Shown one piece after another: positions 16,466 through 26,128 of a stretch of 64,000 nucleotides of DNA. The notes under the pieces are model-generated. The model was not told where the DNA came from. It worked only from the letters and a program-made list of their open reading frames with translations, and made no database searches. The position numbers and the translations under genes are program-made. This stretch comes from Thermanaerosceptrum fracticalcis (GTDB taxonomy: Bacteria; Bacillota; Peptococcia; DRI-13), in NCBI RefSeq assembly GCF_000746025.2, contig NZ_CP045798.1, forward strand, positions 482,501 through 546,500. Direction: 5' to 3'. Position 1 is the first letter of the stretch. Each line of letters starts with the position of its first letter.

Positions 16466-16554
16466 TAAGGAAATTTTCTTGATGTAATGAAATAGCCAGG
16501 TTTAGTTAATTCTATTTGTTGGGACATAGTAGAATTTGCTGTGGAGGGTTCAGC

Positions 16555-17214
16555 GTGGTTTCACTGGCTCAGGTAAAAAACGACCCGGAAGTGATTTGTT
16601 ATATAGAAATGGCCAACTGTCATCTGGGGGAAATGGGTTATACCGACCATAGTTTTCGTCACGTGGAAATAGTCTCCTGTAAAGCCCGGGAGATTCTGGA
16701 CGGACTTCATTATCCGCCGCGCCTGGGGGAATTGGCAGCCATAGCCGGGTATCTCCATGATATCGGGAACGTGGTAAGCCGTTATGACCACAGCCAGTCG
16801 GGGGCCTTGATTGCTTTTCATATTTTAAGGAGAATGGGTATGGACTGCCGGGAGATCGCCATGATTATGGGAGCCATAGGCAACCATGATGAAGGGGAAG
16901 GACAGATTGTCAATATTCTTACGGCAGCCCTGGTTTTGGCGGATAAGACTGATGTCCACCGTTCCCGGGTTCGGAATAAAGATTTTGCCAAGTTTGATAT
17001 TCATGACAGGGTTAATTATGCCGTAGAAAGTTCTGACCTCATTATTGATCCAGAATCCCGAACCATTTTATTGAAATTGGGCATCGATACTAAAATTGTC
17101 CCTGTAATAGAGTACTTTGAAATTTTTATGGTGAGGATGATGATGTGCCGCCGGGCTGCGGCGTACTTAAACTGCCAGTTTTCCATTGTGATTAATGAGG
17201 CCAAACTTCTTTAG
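16555..17214 (+). CDS. HD-domain phosphohydrolase
   Basis: 219 residues from GTG 16555 (GTGGAGGG 8 bases upstream). The HD fold is clear: HSFRHVEIV (first His), GYLHDIGNVVSRYDHSQSG (HD pair), GNHDEGEGQ and LVLADKTDVHRSRVR (further metal ligands). Such enzymes cleave phosphate esters of nucleotides or second messengers. The substrate cannot be read from the sequence. The same type of gene often lies between yajC and secD in these bacteria. Confidence 0.88.
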   Translation: MVSLAQVKNDPEVICYIEMANCHLGEMGYTDHSFRHVEIVSCKAREILDGLHYPPRLGELAAIAGYLHDIGNVVSRYDHSQSGALIAFHILRRMGMDCREIAMIMGAIGNHDEGEGQIVNILTAALVLADKTDVHRSRVRNKDFAKFDIHDRVNYAVESSDLIIDPESRTILLKLGIDTKIVPVIEYFEIFMVRMMMCRRAAAYLNCQFSIVINEAKLL

Positions 17215-20084: not shown

Positions 20085-23000
20085 ATGAGAGGAAGACGAA
20101 TTTGGCGTCTAAAAAAACATAATAGTGATGCCGTACAAACCTTAACGAAGGGGTTAGGCGTTTCCCCAACTCTGGCCAAAATTTTGGTCAACAGGGGAAT
20201 TACTTCTTTAGCAGAGGCGGAAGGGTTTCTACGAGATGATGTGAGAAAACTTAAAAGCCCTTTTGAAATGAAAGGAATCAAAGAAGGAGCCGAACGTGTA
20301 CATAAAGCCATTACAAGCGGAGAAAAAATCCTGGTTTATGGTGATTACGATGTGGACGGTATTACCAGCACCGCTTTATTAACCGGTTTACTCCGTCGTT
20401 TGGGGGCCCAGGTTGATTATTATATACCGGCAAGAATGGAAGAAGGATATGGCTTAAACAACCAGGCCATTCTCCAGGCTAAAGAAGAGGGTATTGATTT
20501 ACTTATTTCTGTTGATTGCGGTATTTCCTCGGTACAGGAGGCCGAATATGCTGCCAGTCTGGGATTAGACATTATTATTACCGATCATCATCAGCCTCCG
20601 GCCCGGCTGCCGCAAGCCTGCGCCGTGATTAACCCCAAACTTACGGAGTGTCAAGTTTCCTGGCTGGATTTGGCCGGTGTGGGTGTGGCTTATAAACTGG
20701 GACAGTCGGTAGCCCAGATGCAAGGAAAGGGAGAATATGCCTATCATTATTTGGATTTAGTGGCTTTGGGGACTATTGCCGATATTGTACCGCTGACTGG
20801 AGAAAACAGGATTTTAGTAAAGGAAGGGCTTAAATTGCTGGCTAAAGCCGAACGTCCGGGTATTAAAGCCCTTTTAGAGGTTACCGGTTTATACGGTAAA
20901 GAGATTTCTACCGGCCAGGTGGGTTTTAGTCTGGCCCCCCGTCTTAATGCCTGCGGTCGTTTAAGTGACGCCAATTTGGGTGTGGAACTCCTCTTAACAG
21001 ATAGTTATGAGCGGGCCAGGGAAGTAGCATTATTCCTGGATAAAGAGAATCAGATGCGCCAGGCCATTGAAGCGGAGATCTTGCAAGATGCAGTGATGCG
21101 GATTGAAAAAGAACTGGACCTGGCCCAAGAAAAAATTATAGTTCTGGCCTCGGCAGAGTGGCATCCCGGGGTCATTGGCATTGTGGCTTCGCGGTTAACG
21201 GAAAAGTATTATCGTCCAACCGTTTTAATTTCCCTGGATAAAGGCTTAGGAAAAGGGTCAGCCCGCAGTATTCCCGGGTTTAATCTTTACCAGGCTTTGG
21301 TTTTTGTGAAAGAACATCTTCTTAAATACGGTGGTCATGAAATGGCCGCAGGCTTAACGATCGCGGAGGAAGCCCTTCCTTCCTTTCGCAGGGCGATCAA
21401 CGAATATGCAGTCCAAACCCTTACTGAGAAAGATATGATTCCCTTCATCCAGGTCGATGCGGAAATAGCCTGGGAAGAGATTAACGAAGACCTTATCCAG
21501 GAGATAACCTGGCTTGCCCCCTTTGGTTTACATAACCCTTCTCCCGTATTGGCTTTACGCAGAGGACAGATGTGCGAATGTAAAGAAGTGGGCACAGAAG
21601 GGGCTCATTTAAAGGTAAGGGTTTTAGGTGAAAATAGAAGATTAGACGGCATTGGCTTTCAATTGGGAGCGTTAGCTCCCCAGGCTGCTGCCTGGGATAG
21701 ATGTGATTTAGCTTTTGTTCCCGAAATCAATGTTTGGAACGGTCGTTCCCAGGTGCAGTTGAACATTAAAGATATTAAGCCTTCCCACGAGCCTGATGAC
21801 CCTTTCCAGCCCATATCCTTTTTAGACCAGCTTTACCTGGAAGGTGAAGTGTGGCTGGAAGATGATTATTACCGGGATATCACGAACCGGGAAGAATTTT
21901 ATACAAAAGTTGTGGGCGTTACCTTTAACGGCAGGCAGGAAATAATCAGGCAAATCAATGAAGGGGAAACGGTAATTTTACAGCGGGAACCCCACAATAT
22001 CTTCGATCCCTGGGCTATTGCCGTGTATTATAACGATGCGCAAATTGGTTATCTCAATGCGCGCCTGTCCAGGAACCTGGCTCAGGCTCTCGATAAGGGA
22101 GCCCGTTACCAGGCTTATGTGACCCAGGTGACAGGACGCCTGAAGGAAATTTTGGGGGTTAATCTCTGTATCCGCAGAGTTTACGAAGAAGAAACGACTA
22201 AAGACCTAGGGAAAATCAAAGAAAAATTTAGGGCTTTGCCCGCGGAAGAGATGTGGCAGGAGATAAGAAAGGCCATCCTCGGTGAGTTTGACTATCATCC
22301 CAAACAGAAGGAAGCATTGCAGGCCCTGCGTGATGGCAGGAATTCCCTTGTGATTTTTGGAACGGGAAGGGGTAAGTCAGCGGTTTTTCAGACCATGGCT
22401 GCTTACCTGGCCCTGGCCAAGGGGAAGGCAACCGTGATTGTCTATCCTTTACGTTCTTTAGTAAATGACCAGTATCATCGTTTAAAAGATAAACTGGAGC
22501 CTTTAGGAATCACAGTGGCTGCCATCAACGGGTCCCTAAATTTAGAAGAGAGAAAAGAATTTTTTAAAGGTGTTCACCAGGGAAACATTGACGTTATTCT
22601 TACCACTCCTGAATTTTTGGCATATCATTTGGAAAAATTCCACATAATGGTAGACAGAATAGGTCTTTTTGTGGTCGATGAAGCCCATCACCTCCAGGGA
22701 AAACGTTATGGTTACCGCCAGTTAGGTAAAGTGTGGCGTGAGTTAGGGGCTCCGTTAGCTTTAGCTGTGACAGCAACGGCCAATGATGAAACGGCCCAGC
22801 ATATTGTAGACACCCTGGCCTGCCGGTCCTTGATTATTGATACTCACGAGCGTGCCAATCTTCAGGTTTTAGACAGGCGGGGAGAAAAAGACAAACTCAG
22901 ATACCTGCTTAACCTCATCGCCTGCGGAGAACGGGTAGTGATCTATGTAAACAGCCGTAAACAGGCTTACCAGCTGGCAAAAGAATTGCGCCAGTACTAT

Positions 23001-23702
23001 CCTTCCCTCAGGGATGAGATAGGATTTTATCACGGCGGGCTGAACAGCGAATACCGCCTGACCCTGGAAAATATGTTTCGAGAGGGCGCCTTGCGGGTAA
23101 TGGTTACGACCAGTGCTTTTGGGGAAGGTGTGGATTTCCCTGACATTCGACATGTGGTATTATATCATTTGAGCTTCTCCCGTACCGAATTCAATCAACT
23201 GTCCGGGAGAGCAGGACGCGATAACGGAAAAGCCCAGATTCACCTCTTGTTTGGTGAAGGAGACAGGAAACTCAATGAACTTATCTTAGAAGGCAGTACC
23301 CCCTCCCGTGAGGTGCTGGGGAAATTATATTTGTATCTCCGTGACAAATCCCGTACCCTAAATCCCCTGCAGATCACAAACAGTGAACTGGCTGAGTATA
23401 TGCAGCAAGCTGGTCATAAAAATTTCCGTGAACAAACGGCTTCTGCCTCTTTGGCCATCCTGGAGGAATTAGGCCTTTTATTGCGGGAAATCGAAGGGAA
23501 CCAGCGTTATCTTCACCTGGTCCCGCCACCGCCGGGTAAACTGGACTTGAACGACTCCGTGCGTTACCTGGAAGGATTGGAAGAGTGGGAAGAATTTAAG
23601 GAATTTGCCGAATATGTTTTAAAAGAAGATGCAGCCTGTATTTTAGGCACAGTAAATAAACCCATCTTTCCACAGATGCCCCTGAACTTGAAGGAGGATT
23701 AA
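20085..23702 (+). CDS. RecJ exonuclease - HIRAN - RecQ-like helicase fusion
   Basis: 1205 residues from ATG 20085 (GGGAGG upstream), about twice the usual RecJ length. Residues 1-575 are a complete RecJ: DYDVDG (87-92), VDCGIS, TDHH (about 166), GTIADIVPL and the DHHA1 motif GGHEMAAG (about 416), then an OB-like region. Residues about 610-685 read as a HIRAN domain (LQREPHNIFDPWAIAVYY, IGYLNARLS). Residues about 740-1090 are a superfamily 2 helicase: GTGRGKSA (Walker A), VVDEAHHL, VTATAN and QLSGRAGRD (motif VI). No Cys4 zinc site of classical RecQ is seen. A winged-helix-like tail follows. RecJ degrades single strands 5' to 3' and RecQ supplies them, so the fusion should be a self-sufficient end-resection or fork-processing machine. 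No frameshift or inner stop is seen. It is followed 2 bases later by apt, as recJ often is. Confidence 0.93.
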   Translation: MRGRRIWRLKKHNSDAVQTLTKGLGVSPTLAKILVNRGITSLAEAEGFLRDDVRKLKSPFEMKGIKEGAERVHKAITSGEKILVYGDYDVDGITSTALLTGLLRRLGAQVDYYIPARMEEGYGLNNQAILQAKEEGIDLLISVDCGISSVQEAEYAASLGLDIIITDHHQPPARLPQACAVINPKLTECQVSWLDLAGVGVAYKLGQSVAQMQGKGEYAYHYLDLVALGTIADIVPLTGENRILVKEGLKLLAKAERPGIKALLEVTGLYGKEISTGQVGFSLAPRLNACGRLSDANLGVELLLTDSYERAREVALFLDKENQMRQAIEAEILQDAVMRIEKELDLAQEKIIVLASAEWHPGVIGIVASRLTEKYYRPTVLISLDKGLGKGSARSIPGFNLYQALVFVKEHLLKYGGHEMAAGLTIAEEALPSFRRAINEYAVQTLTEKDMIPFIQVDAEIAWEEINEDLIQEITWLAPFGLHNPSPVLALRRGQMCECKEVGTEGAHLKVRVLGENRRLDGIGFQLGALAPQAAAWDRCDLAFVPEINVWNGRSQVQLNIKDIKPSHEPDDPFQPISFLDQLYLEGEVWLEDDYYRDITNREEFYTKVVGVTFNGRQEIIRQINEGETVILQREPHNIFDPWAIAVYYNDAQIGYLNARLSRNLAQALDKGARYQAYVTQVTGRLKEILGVNLCIRRVYEEETTKDLGKIKEKFRALPAEEMWQEIRKAILGEFDYHPKQKEALQALRDGRNSLVIFGTGRGKSAVFQTMAAYLALAKGKATVIVYPLRSLVNDQYHRLKDKLEPLGITVAAINGSLNLEERKEFFKGVHQGNIDVILTTPEFLAYHLEKFHIMVDRIGLFVVDEAHHLQGKRYGYRQLGKVWRELGAPLALAVTATANDETAQHIVDTLACRSLIIDTHERANLQVLDRRGEKDKLRYLLNLIACGERVVIYVNSRKQAYQLAKELRQYYPSLRDEIGFYHGGLNSEYRLTLENMFREGALRVMVTTSAFGEGVDFPDIRHVVLYHLSFSRTEFNQLSGRAGRDNGKAQIHLLFGEGDRKLNELILEGSTPSREVLGKLYLYLRDKSRTLNPLQITNSELAEYMQQAGHKNFREQTASASLAILEELGLLLREIEGNQRYLHLVPPPPGKLDLNDSVRYLEGLEEWEEFKEFAEYVLKEDAACILGTVNKPIFPQMPLNLKED

Positions 23703-23704
23703 TT

Positions 23705-24217
23705 ATGGATATTAAAGAATTCATCAGAAATGTTCCGGATTTTCCCAGAAAAGGAATCCAATTTAAAGATATTACTCCCCTTTTGGCCAACGGGCAGGCT
23801 CTGCGCTTCGTGATCAAGTCTCTGGCCGACGAATTTCGTGATAAAGATATTGAGCTGGTGGTGGGGCCGGAAGCGCGAGGTTTTTTAATCGGTGCTCCCC
23901 TGGCCTATGAATTGGGAGCTGGTTTTGTTCCGGTACGTAAGGAAGGGAAATTACCCTATCATACGTTAAAAGGTGAGTATACCCTGGAATACGGTGAGGA
24001 TAAACTGGAAATTCATACTGACAGCATTAAAAAGGGACAAAAGGTCTTAATAGTAGATGACCTTTTAGCAACGGGGGGTACCATTAAAACGGTAGTAGAT
24101 TTAGTGGAAAAACTGGAAGGTAATATTGTTGGATTAGCCTTCCTCATTGAGCTTGGCTTTTTAGAAGGCAGGAAGGTCCTAGCCCGGTATGATGTGCGGT
24201 CTTTGCTGGAATTTTAG
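23705..24217 (+). CDS. apt: Adenine phosphoribosyltransferase
   Basis: 170 residues from ATG 23705 (GAAGGAGGA upstream). It salvages adenine to AMP using PRPP. The PRPP-binding motif VLIVDDLLATGGT is present (about residues 115-127), with GPEARGFLIGAPLAYELG and the family start FIRNVPDFPRKGIQFKDITPLL. Its place between recJ and rel is the common Firmicutes order. It is probably co-transcribed with both. Confidence 0.97.
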   Translation: MDIKEFIRNVPDFPRKGIQFKDITPLLANGQALRFVIKSLADEFRDKDIELVVGPEARGFLIGAPLAYELGAGFVPVRKEGKLPYHTLKGEYTLEYGEDKLEIHTDSIKKGQKVLIVDDLLATGGTIKTVVDLVEKLEGNIVGLAFLIELGFLEGRKVLARYDVRSLLEF

Positions 24218-24247: not shown

Positions 24248-26128
24248 GTGTCTTTAGAAGACTTATTAGAACAGGTGCAGAGATACCAGCCTCAAGGTGA
24301 CCTCAGTATTATCGAAAAAGCATACAACTTTGCCGAAAAAGCCCATGAAGGACAAAGCCGCATTTCGGGGGAGCCTTATTTTATTCATCCTGTTGCTGTG
24401 GCCAGTATCCTGGCCCGTCTGGAACTGGATATCCCTACTATTGCCGGCGGTTTACTCCATGATGTGGTGGAAGATACAAAGATAACGCTGGTTGAACTGG
24501 AAAAGGAATTTGGTGTGGAAATTGCGCAACTGGTGGACGGAGTTACCAAGTTAAGCAGGATTGAGTTTCGTTCCAAGGAAGAACAACAGGTAGAAAACCT
24601 GCGCAAGATGTTTCTGGCTATGGCCAAGGATATTCGCGTAGTGTTAATTAAACTGGCTGACAGGCTCCATAACATGCGGACCCTCAAACACCAATCTGCC
24701 TGGAAGCAAAGAGAGATTGCCGAAGAGACTCTGGAAATTTTCGCGCCTTTAGCCCATCGTTTAGGAATTTTTGCTATAAAGTGGGAGCTGGAAGATCTAG
24801 CCTTTCGTTACCTGGAACCGGAGCAATACTATCACCTGGTGGAAGGCATTTCCATGAAACGGCGTGAACGGGAGGCCTACATTGATCAGGTGATGAATAT
24901 CTTAAAGGAACGGCTGGTGGAGGTAGGTATTAAAGCCGACATTCAAGGGCGCCCCAAACATTTCTACAGTATCTATAAAAAAATGAAAGAACAGGGTAAA
25001 GAACTCAGTGAAATCTATGACCTCATCGCTGTGCGGGTTATAGTGGAGTCAATCAAAGACTGTTATGGTGCTCTGGGTATAGTGCATACGTTATGGAAAC
25101 CTATTCCAGGGCGTTTCAAAGACTATATTGCCATGCCCAAACCCAATATGTATCAATCCCTGCATACTACGGTCATGGGTCCCCAGGGGGAACCCTTTGA
25201 AATACAGATTAGGACTTTTGAGATGCATCGTACGGCGGAGTTTGGTATTGCTGCCCACTGGAAGTATAAAGAAGGAGGAAAAGGGGGCAGTAAAGATTTT
25301 GACCAGAGACTGGCCTGGCTACGGCAGATCCTGGAATGGCAGACTGAGCTGCGGGACGCCAGGGAGTTTATGGAAACCCTGAAAATAGATGTCTTTTCTG
25401 ATGTGGTTTTCGTCTTTACGCCCAAAGGCGATGTCTTTGAACTCCCGGCGGGTTCGGTGCCCATAGATTTTGCTTACCGGATTCACTCCGATGTGGGTCA
25501 TCGCTGTATTGGCAGTAAAGTGAACGGCAGGATAGTACCCCTGGATTATACCCTGAAAAACGGGGATATCGTAGAAATCCTTACCTCAAAACAGGCCAAT
25601 GGTCCCAGTCGCGACTGGTTAAAACTGGTAAAAACCTCCCAGGCTAAGAACCGCATTCGCCAATGGTTTAGAAAAGAAAAACGGGAAGAAAATATTGCCC
25701 GTGGTAAAGAAATTCTAGAAAAAGAATTGAAAAAGCAAGGGCTAGAGCCGGGAGAACTATTCAAGAGCGACCGGATTCTTGAAGTTAGCAAAAGGTTTAA
25801 TTTTAATAACCCCGATGAATTCTTTGCTACGTTGGGTGACGGGGCCTTAAGTCCTATCCAGGTCATTGCCAGAGTAAAAGATGATATTTATAAAGGCAAA
25901 AAATTGCCCGATGAAAGCATCTTAACAGAGCTGCCTGCCGAAAAGAAAAGCACCGGGTACGGCAAAGCCTCCCAGGGTATTCGAGTACGCGGCGTCGATG
26001 ATGTCTTGATTCGTTTATCACGCTGCTGCAATCCCCTGCCGGGAGACCCCATTGTAGGGTATGTGACGCGGGGACGTGGTGTTTCTGTACACCGGGCCGA
26101 TTGTCCCAATGTGACTTACCACTATTAA
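24248..26128 (+). CDS. rel: Bifunctional (p)ppGpp synthetase/hydrolase Rel, ACT domain lost by frameshift
   Basis: 626 residues in the first frame, from GTG 24248; full Rel proteins have about 720-740. It makes and degrades the stringent-response alarmone (p)ppGpp. Domains in order: HD hydrolase (about 40-150, GGLLHDVVEDT, DRLHNMRTL), synthetase (about 230-350, YSIYKKMKEQGK, YQSLHTTVMGP), TGS (about 385-450), and the Cys-rich zinc-finger region (SRCCNPLPGDPIVGY, HRADCPN). The frame then stops at 26128 just before the C-terminal ACT domain, which continues in the +1 frame. The catalytic half is intact, so enzyme activity is likely, but ACT-dependent ribosome sensing would be affected unless the shift is a sequencing error. 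Confidence 0.93.
   Translation: MSLEDLLEQVQRYQPQGDLSIIEKAYNFAEKAHEGQSRISGEPYFIHPVAVASILARLELDIPTIAGGLLHDVVEDTKITLVELEKEFGVEIAQLVDGVTKLSRIEFRSKEEQQVENLRKMFLAMAKDIRVVLIKLADRLHNMRTLKHQSAWKQREIAEETLEIFAPLAHRLGIFAIKWELEDLAFRYLEPEQYYHLVEGISMKRREREAYIDQVMNILKERLVEVGIKADIQGRPKHFYSIYKKMKEQGKELSEIYDLIAVRVIVESIKDCYGALGIVHTLWKPIPGRFKDYIAMPKPNMYQSLHTTVMGPQGEPFEIQIRTFEMHRTAEFGIAAHWKYKEGGKGGSKDFDQRLAWLRQILEWQTELRDAREFMETLKIDVFSDVVFVFTPKGDVFELPAGSVPIDFAYRIHSDVGHRCIGSKVNGRIVPLDYTLKNGDIVEILTSKQANGPSRDWLKLVKTSQAKNRIRQWFRKEKREENIARGKEILEKELKKQGLEPGELFKSDRILEVSKRFNFNNPDEFFATLGDGALSPIQVIARVKDDIYKGKKLPDESILTELPAEKKSTGYGKASQGIRVRGVDDVLIRLSRCCNPLPGDPIVGYVTRGRGVSVHRADCPNVTYHY

What the first reader, a model, noticed from the sequence alone, without database searches (positions are those of the whole stretch)
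20085..23702. RecJ-HIRAN-RecQ-like helicase in one polypeptide
The sequence shows one uninterrupted 1205-residue frame with all RecJ motifs, then a HIRAN-like domain, then complete superfamily 2 helicase motifs with GRAGRD. RecJ and RecQ act together in bacteria (established). Fusing them with a HIRAN domain, which in HLTF binds 3' DNA ends, suggests an all-in-one enzyme that recognises an end, unwinds and degrades. The helicase lacks the RecQ zinc-binding Cys set, so it may be a distinct group. RecJ-helicase fusions may exist in related clostridia, but I know of no functional study.
Basis: partly seen in the sequence, partly recalled or inferred. Interest (0 to 1): 0.72.

Follow-up and report, generated by a model that had tools for sequence, protein, structure and literature searches.

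The report
RecJ nuclease fused to HIRAN-RecQ-like helicase
A bacterial DNA-trimming enzyme (RecJ) carries its own DNA-end-binding domain and its own unwinding motor in one chain; this version is old and widespread, and the unexplained tail of RecJ in Bacillus and Staphylococcus appears to be the decayed remains of that motor.

Summary
ORF 20085-23702 (+) encodes one 1205-aa protein: complete RecJ (1-565), HIRAN (604-686), and an SF2 helicase (722-1068) with its own ~140-aa C-terminal domain. It sits in the ordinary recJ slot (tgt-yajC-HD-secD-secF-lapA-[recJ]-apt-relA-dtd) and is not an assembly artefact: the same frame recurs in about half of 60 relatives and in 20 of 250 sampled genomes of the phylum. 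Named relatives are Bacillota (Peptococcaceae, Thermincola, Orenia, Anaerospora) and Actinomycetota (Coriobacteriia), mostly with the same gene order.

The helicase is a separate clade beside RecQ: no RecQ zinc cysteines, below the RecQ family cut-off, and a C-terminal domain that true RecQs lack.

New here: the fusion has eroded repeatedly. Relatives lose HIRAN, or the first motor domain, or all helicase motifs. The C-terminal domain of Bacillus/Staphylococcus RecJ (PF10141) is most likely the decayed RecA2 plus C-terminal domain of this helicase. Six Eremiobacterota genomes show the converse: HIRAN-helicase kept at this locus, RecJ not found.

Most likely function: coupled unwinding and 5'->3' degradation in RecFOR gap repair, with HIRAN holding a 3' end. 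Polarity, end-binding and coupling are inferred. AddAB is also present, so it is not the only resection enzyme.

The parts
20085..23702 (+). RecJ-HIRAN-helicase fusion, 1205 aa
20073..20079 (+). Shine-Dalgarno-like GGGAGGA before the ATG
   Evidence: sequence read
20325..20774 (+). DHH domain of RecJ (residues 81-230); GDYDVDG 86-92, D144, DHH 167-169, D233 invariant in 11 relatives
21132..21410 (+). DHHA1 domain (residues 350-442); S392, R394, S395, GGH 416-418 invariant
21453..21773 (+). RecJ OB domain (residues 457-563)
21894..22142 (+). HIRAN domain (residues 604-686); N638, D641, G655, Y656 invariant among relatives
22299..22796 (+). helicase RecA1 (residues 739-904): Q741, TGRGKS 760-765, DEAH 865-868, TAT 896-898
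22893..23222 (+). helicase RecA2 (residues 937-1046): SAFGEG 1010-1015, QxxGRxxR 1038-1045
23289..23699 (+). C-terminal domain specific to RecJ-linked helicases (residues 1069-1205); helical with a beta hairpin in the model, winged-helix-like; not matched by any Pfam model in the window protein; source of PF10141
18574..19446 (+). secF, conserved upstream neighbour (49 of 80 loci)
23705..24217 (+). apt, immediately downstream
24248..26128 (+). relA, conserved downstream neighbour (73 of 80 loci)

Best explanation
The gene is the bona fide recJ of this Peptococcaceae-like bacterium. Its product combines a 5'->3' single-strand DNA exonuclease, a HIRAN domain and a RecQ-related helicase in one chain. 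Most likely it widens single-strand gaps and resects 5' ends for the RecF/RecO/RecR pathway: the helicase moves 3'->5' on the template or 3'-ended strand, the displaced 5'-ended strand is fed to the RecJ active site beside it, and HIRAN holds a single-stranded 3' end (the stalled primer end at a gap, or the 3' end of a break) so that the enzyme starts there and spares that strand. Shown here by sequence: domain content, intact catalytic motifs, purifying selection, orthology and locus. Inferred: strand polarities (from RecJ and RecQ), 3'-end capture (from HLTF), coupling, and the pathway. In evolution the fusion is old; it has repeatedly lost HIRAN or the motor, and what is left of the helicase is the C-terminal domain (PF10141) of RecJ in Bacilli.
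For: Full-length recJ equivalog match and all RecJ motifs; complete SF2 motifs in 48 of 49 intact fusions examined; model of 568-1205 with pLDDT 87 whose best solved matches are RecQ catalytic cores, E 1.4e-21. HIRAN residues aligned to HLTF N91 and D94 are invariant, Y93 is F640; HLTF Y72/Y93 border the dinucleotide pocket and the N90,N91 double mutant loses HIRAN function (PMC4666394). dN/dS 0.10-0.29 in each domain against the sister genome. In E. coli RecQ (3'->5') and RecJ (5'->3') act together to widen gaps and to resect blunt or 3'-tailed ends (PMC9203016, PMC4846377). In Bacteroidota recJ and recQ are adjacent separate genes, 9 bp apart or overlapping. Own genome encodes RecF and RecO and no stand-alone RecQ over the cut-off. 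Same locus in Bacillota and Actinomycetota. Erosion: eroded forms nest among intact ones in the RecJ tree, intact forms as one clade rejected p 1e-55; C-terminal extensions align to the helicase, P 1.7e-21 to 1.6e-31, and Bacilli alone P 4.9e-9, with clean controls.
Against: No biochemistry. AddA and AddB are present in the same genome, so break resection does not depend on this protein. Repeated loss of HIRAN or of the motor shows that neither is essential to RecJ in many lineages. Half of fusion genomes also carry a RecQ-family protein. The HIRAN match to HLTF is weak by sequence (E 1e-3) and Y93 and H110 are replaced by F and Y.
Confidence: 0.6

Rival explanations
1. Replication-fork remodeller in the manner of HLTF/Rad5: HIRAN captures the nascent leading-strand 3' end, the motor regresses or unwinds the fork, and RecJ trims the nascent lagging strand from its 5' end.
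For: HIRAN in HLTF works in fork remodelling (PMC4666394); RecJ with a RecQ-like helicase is proposed to process the nascent lagging strand of stalled or reversed forks (PMC10804225); AddAB is present for breaks, leaving fork and gap work to this enzyme.
Against: The motor belongs to the RecQ side of SF2, not the SNF2 translocases of HLTF. Nothing here separates fork reversal from gap widening.
Confidence: 0.2
2. HIRAN and helicase serve mainly as a DNA-binding or docking platform that tunes RecJ; unwinding is minor. This would explain why the motor is discarded again and again while RecA2 and the C-terminal domain are kept.
For: Eroded RecJs in the same family as intact ones keep RecA2 and the C-terminal domain but no Walker A, DExH or arginine-finger motif; the unrelated extra C-terminal domain of Deinococcus RecJ binds the helicase HerA (PMC4663267).
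Against: In 48 of 49 intact fusions every ATPase motif is kept, which a platform would not need; Eremiobacterota keep the HIRAN-helicase with no RecJ found.
Confidence: 0.17
3. Anti-phage defence component, as suggested by PADLOC matches to DpdF and PsyrT.
For: DpdF 193 bits and PsyrT 190 bits over the helicase core.
Against: Those models describe RecQ-like helicases in general and match only 718-1108; the gene is the only recJ, at the housekeeping secDF-apt-relA locus; no phage or plasmid record covers 80% of it.
Confidence: 0.02
4. Sequencing or assembly artefact joining recJ to a helicase gene.
For: None found.
Against: Open, collinear frame in independent genomes from several classes and two phyla.
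Confidence: 0.01

Closest known systems
RecJ (TIGR00644; E. coli, Thermus, Deinococcus, S. aureus)
   Same: DHH-DHHA1-OB core with all motifs; the only recJ; secDF-apt-relA neighbourhood
   Different: Adds HIRAN and an intact helicase; textbook RecJ ends after OB or after a short extra domain
RecQ family helicases (TIGR00614, TIGR01389)
   Same: RecQ-type RecA1-RecA2 core by sequence and fold; RecQ partners RecJ in E. coli
   Different: Below the family cut-off, no zinc-binding Cys set, no RQC/HRDC match, own C-terminal domain, separate clade
HLTF / Rad5 HIRAN domain
   Same: HIRAN fold family with N91- and D94-equivalent residues kept; joined to an SF2 motor
   Different: HLTF has an SNF2 motor and a RING domain and no nuclease; two pocket residues (Y93, H110) replaced by F and Y here
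PF10141 ssDNA-exonuc_C (C-terminal domain of Bacilli RecJ)
   Same: Homologous to RecA2 plus C-terminal domain of this helicase
   Different: In Bacilli no ATPase motifs remain; function unknown
Deinococcus RecJ domain IV (HerA-binding)
   Same: An extra C-terminal part of RecJ tied to a helicase partner (PMC4663267)
   Different: No sequence match to the domain found here
AddAB / RecBCD
   Same: Helicase and nuclease joined for resection
   Different: Different folds and subunit make-up; AddAB is present separately in this genome

Membership tests
RecJ | full-length recJ equivalog match above the cut-off | tested here: met
   576 bits, cut-off 396.9, residues 27-564, model 2-546/546
RecJ | metal-binding and DHH/DHHA1 motifs | tested here: met
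   D87, D89, D144, H168, H169, D233 and GGH 416-418 invariant in A1
RecJ | 5'->3' ssDNA exonuclease activity | not testable with these tools
   needs purified protein
RecQ family | match above the family cut-off (TIGR00614, 219.8 bits) | tested here: not met
   170.4 bits; recQ equivalog 181.9 against 640.2; all tested fusions 147-202 bits
RecQ family | RecQ-type helicase core motifs and fold | tested here: met
   motifs; Foldseek best hits RecQ catalytic cores E 1.4e-21; hhalign to RecQ 100%
RecQ family | zinc-binding cysteines and RQC/HRDC after RecA2 | tested here: not met
   one Cys in 1046-1205; no Pfam match in that part
RecQ family | groups with RecQ in a tree | tested here: not met
   RecJ-linked and stand-alone HIRAN helicases form one clade and eight RecQ-family proteins of relatives another, split at 100 (quick method)
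HIRAN | Pfam HIRAN above the gathering score | tested here: met
   44.5 bits, cut-off 24.7; HLTF HIRAN chains E 1e-3
HIRAN | binds a single-stranded 3' end | not testable with these tools
   N91/D94-equivalents kept, Y93 to F, H110 to Y
PF10141 (window protein) | match of the window protein to PF10141 | tested here: not met
   none in window 23160-23699 nor in own genome; link rests on relatives: intact fusion G027 25.8 bits just below the cut-off, eroded G025 26.5 bits just above it, and profile-profile alignments

The most novel reading that the evidence does not exclude
RecJ in the common ancestry of Bacillota and Actinomycetota was a three-part resection enzyme (3'-end capture by HIRAN, unwinding, 5' degradation in one chain). 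Most lineages have since dismantled it, and the PF10141 domain of RecJ in Bacillus and Staphylococcus is a dead helicase kept as a DNA- or protein-binding scaffold.
Probability: 0.4. Interest if true: 0.75.

Novelty: new variant of a known kind. Interest (0 to 1): 0.62.

Why it matters
RecJ and RecQ are textbook partners that are studied as separate proteins. A natural single-chain version with a 3'-end-binding domain between them makes the coupling directly testable: one protein, with point mutations in nuclease, motor and end-binding pocket. The erosion series also gives an origin and a testable role for the C-terminal domain of Bacillus and Staphylococcus RecJ, which in Pfam is a domain named only by position. 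In the open-access library searched, no paper describes either point; subscription papers were not searchable, and such proteins sit in databases under the name RecJ.

Tried and rejected
Artefact by missing stop: rejected. Fusion as a general replacement of stand-alone RecQ: rejected; among 22 fusion genomes of the phylum sample about 12 also have a RecQ-type match, against roughly 70 of 228 genomes without the fusion (my count; one search agrees). Fusion as the only resection enzyme: rejected, AddAB present. Defence function: set aside. Chance similarity of the eroded tails: column-shuffled alignments reach at most 5.4% probability against 96-99.9% for the real ones (one of the 180 shuffles failed to run), and the Bacilli and eroded tails score 0.5% and 5.8% against true RecQ. 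Searching the PDB with the first, small alignment of eroded tails gave nothing; its AlphaFold model was poor, pLDDT 57, and Foldseek gave only weak winged-helix matches. The larger alignment A4 found S. aureus RecJ 643-755, E 2.4e-8, but A4 contained Bacilli sequences, so that hit is not independent. Deinococcus domain IV as a relic of the same helicase: no match. Whether the stand-alone HIRAN-helicase of Eremiobacterota is the unfused ancestor or a fission product: not resolved; it is sister to all fusions (support 93) yet lies in the recJ slot of genomes where no recJ was found. Literature searches gave no description of the fusion.
Full report
What is there. The frame 20085-23702 (+) is one 1205-residue protein with a good ribosome-binding site. 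Pfam finds DHH, DHHA1, RecJ_OB, HIRAN, DEAD and Helicase_C, all above their gathering scores. NCBIfam names residues 27-564 RecJ at 576 bits, while the helicase part stays below the RecQ cut-offs (170 of 219.8; 182 of 640). In an alignment of eleven full-length relatives at 36-62% identity (A1) the RecJ metal ligands, the helicase motifs TGRGKS, DExH, TAT, SAFGEG and QxxGRxxR, and four HIRAN pocket positions are invariant. The neighbours tgt, yajC, an HD-domain gene, secD, secF, lapA before it and apt, relA, dtd after it make this the ordinary recJ locus of Gram-positive bacteria.

Not an artefact. The sister genome (97% identity) and more than 25 other genomes carry the same uninterrupted fusion. 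Each domain shows dN/dS of 0.10-0.29 against the sister genome (few changes, so rough).

Helicase and HIRAN. An AlphaFold2 model of residues 568-1205 has mean pLDDT 87.1 and pTM 0.78; its best solved matches are RecQ catalytic cores (E 1.4e-21). The whole-chain TM-scores are low (0.3-0.4 of the query) because HIRAN and the C-terminal domain have no counterpart in those entries. The stretch after RecA2 holds one cysteine and no Pfam match. A profile of that C-terminal domain finds none of eight RecQ-family proteins from relatives, which match only RecA1 and RecA2, so it marks this helicase group. In a tree, RecJ-linked and stand-alone HIRAN helicases form one clade apart from RecQ, support 100. 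HIRAN matches HLTF structures at E 1e-3: HLTF N91 and D94 correspond to N638 and D641, Y93 to F640, H110 to Y656; Y72 to F614 is my reading by eye. In HLTF, Y72 and Y93 border the pocket for the dinucleotide, and only the N90,N91 double mutant lost HIRAN function fully (PMC4666394).

Distribution. A scan of named genomes with the HIRAN-helicase alignment returned at least 549 relatives; the best 80 were kept. Of those, most are full fusions of about 1200-1250 residues: Peptococcaceae, Thermincola ferriacetica, Orenia metallireducens, Anaerospora hongkongensis, Massilibacillus, a MAG labelled Aneurinibacillus, and many Coriobacteriia and other Actinomycetota such as Kribbibacterium absianum and Parafannyhessea umbonata. 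In an even sample of 250 genomes of the phylum, 20 have the full fusion (my count of matches over 700 bits in frames of 1197-1272). In 61 genomes of the phylum of Kribbibacterium, two have it, and four have RecJ-helicase without a detectable HIRAN. relA lies downstream in 73 of the 80 loci and secF upstream in 49, including Actinomycetota; many loci are cut by contig ends. Same place and same order argue for common descent.

Erosion. Relatives show every stage of loss. Some have RecJ-helicase without HIRAN (e.g. L057, L059, L196). Some have RecJ-RecA2-C-terminal domain without RecA1 and with GRAGR changed to GWAQS (L040). L043 still shows a degenerate RecA1 without Walker A or DExH, and L049 keeps degenerate copies of all three parts. 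Many RecJs of about 800-970 residues retain only the C-terminal domain at 15-33 bits. Of 49 intact fusions, 48 keep all three ATPase motifs tested; of 25 eroded or extended forms none keeps Walker A or DExH, while all keep the RecJ motifs. In the RecJ-domain tree eroded forms are scattered among intact ones: L039, L040 and L042 lie with the intact L014 and L015 of the same family, L168 beside Orenia, L048 beside the Sporomusaceae. Holding the fused forms together as one clade is rejected, p 1e-55, with at least 12 changes. With the remnants, this favours repeated loss over repeated gain. The trees are quick ones (LG+G4, no bootstrap) with several long branches, and transfer is not excluded.

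The Bacillus/Staphylococcus domain. The tails of eroded RecJs align profile-to-profile with RecA2 plus C-terminal domain (probability 99.4, P 1.7e-21). For Bacilli-type tails carrying PF10141 the value is 96.0, P 4.9e-9, and for other tails 99.9, P 1.6e-31; the same Bacilli tails against HIRAN and RecA1 give 0.1 and 4.6. Column shuffles give at most 5.4, and Bacilli tails against true RecQ give 0.5. The curated PF10141 model itself matches an eroded fusion just above its cut-off (26.5, G025) and an intact fusion just below it (25.8, G027). Twelve of 28 C-terminal domains, eroded and Bacilli ones included, match PF10141. A profile of all of them finds S. aureus RecJ (8y30) residues 643-755 at E 2.4e-8 (it included Bacilli sequences). 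I conclude that PF10141 is most likely the decayed second half of this helicase.

The converse loss. In Eremiobacterota/Vulcanimicrobiota a HIRAN-helicase of about 600-700 residues follows secD-secF, with apt and relA further on in L150. TIGR00644 finds no recJ in the six genomes (they are MAGs or drafts, completeness not told). So the HIRAN-helicase can serve without RecJ.

Mechanism. RecJ degrades 5'->3' and RecQ unwinds 3'->5'; in E. coli they are in one epistasis group for gap widening (PMC9203016), and RecQ is needed for RecJ to start on blunt or 3'-tailed ends (PMC4846377). On a gap or end, a 3'->5' motor on one strand and a 5'->3' nuclease on the other advance in the same direction, so joining them is mechanically sensible. 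Adjacent recJ-recQ genes in Bacteroidota support the pairing independently. The genome has RecF and RecO and also AddA and AddB, so gap and fork work is likelier than general break resection. Polarity, 3'-end capture and coupling remain inference.

Novelty. RecJ, HIRAN and RecQ-like helicases are all known. The three-part protein is present in databases under the name RecJ, but no paper on it, or on the origin of PF10141, was found in the open-access library. I rate it a new variant of a known kind.

Noticed in passing
L136, L138, L144, L150, L151, L152 (Eremiobacterota/Vulcanimicrobiota): Stand-alone HIRAN-helicase directly after secD-secF in genomes where no recJ was found.
   Followed up: partly
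L160:2316-4286 and L161 (genome G192): One genome holds both a stand-alone HIRAN-helicase (657 aa) far from recJ and a RecJ-helicase fusion without HIRAN, with a stretched helicase branch, at the recJ-relA locus.
   Followed up: partly
L190:388-5301 (G008) and similar frames in G009, G023, G055: A 1605-1640 aa protein with a RecQ-like SF2 helicase followed by a UvrD-type SF1 helicase in one chain.
   Followed up: partly
L056 (G007), between RecJ and helicase: HIRAN is replaced by about 100 residues of Gly/Ala/Glu-rich low-complexity linker.
   Followed up: no
window 16516-17214: HD-domain protein gene inserted between yajC and secD in the otherwise canonical tgt-yajC-secDF-recJ-apt-relA cluster.
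   Followed up: no
L224, L225 (Parabacteroides, Bacteroides): recJ and recQ are adjacent separate genes, 9 bp apart or overlapping by 8 bp, on records labelled plasmids.
   Followed up: partly
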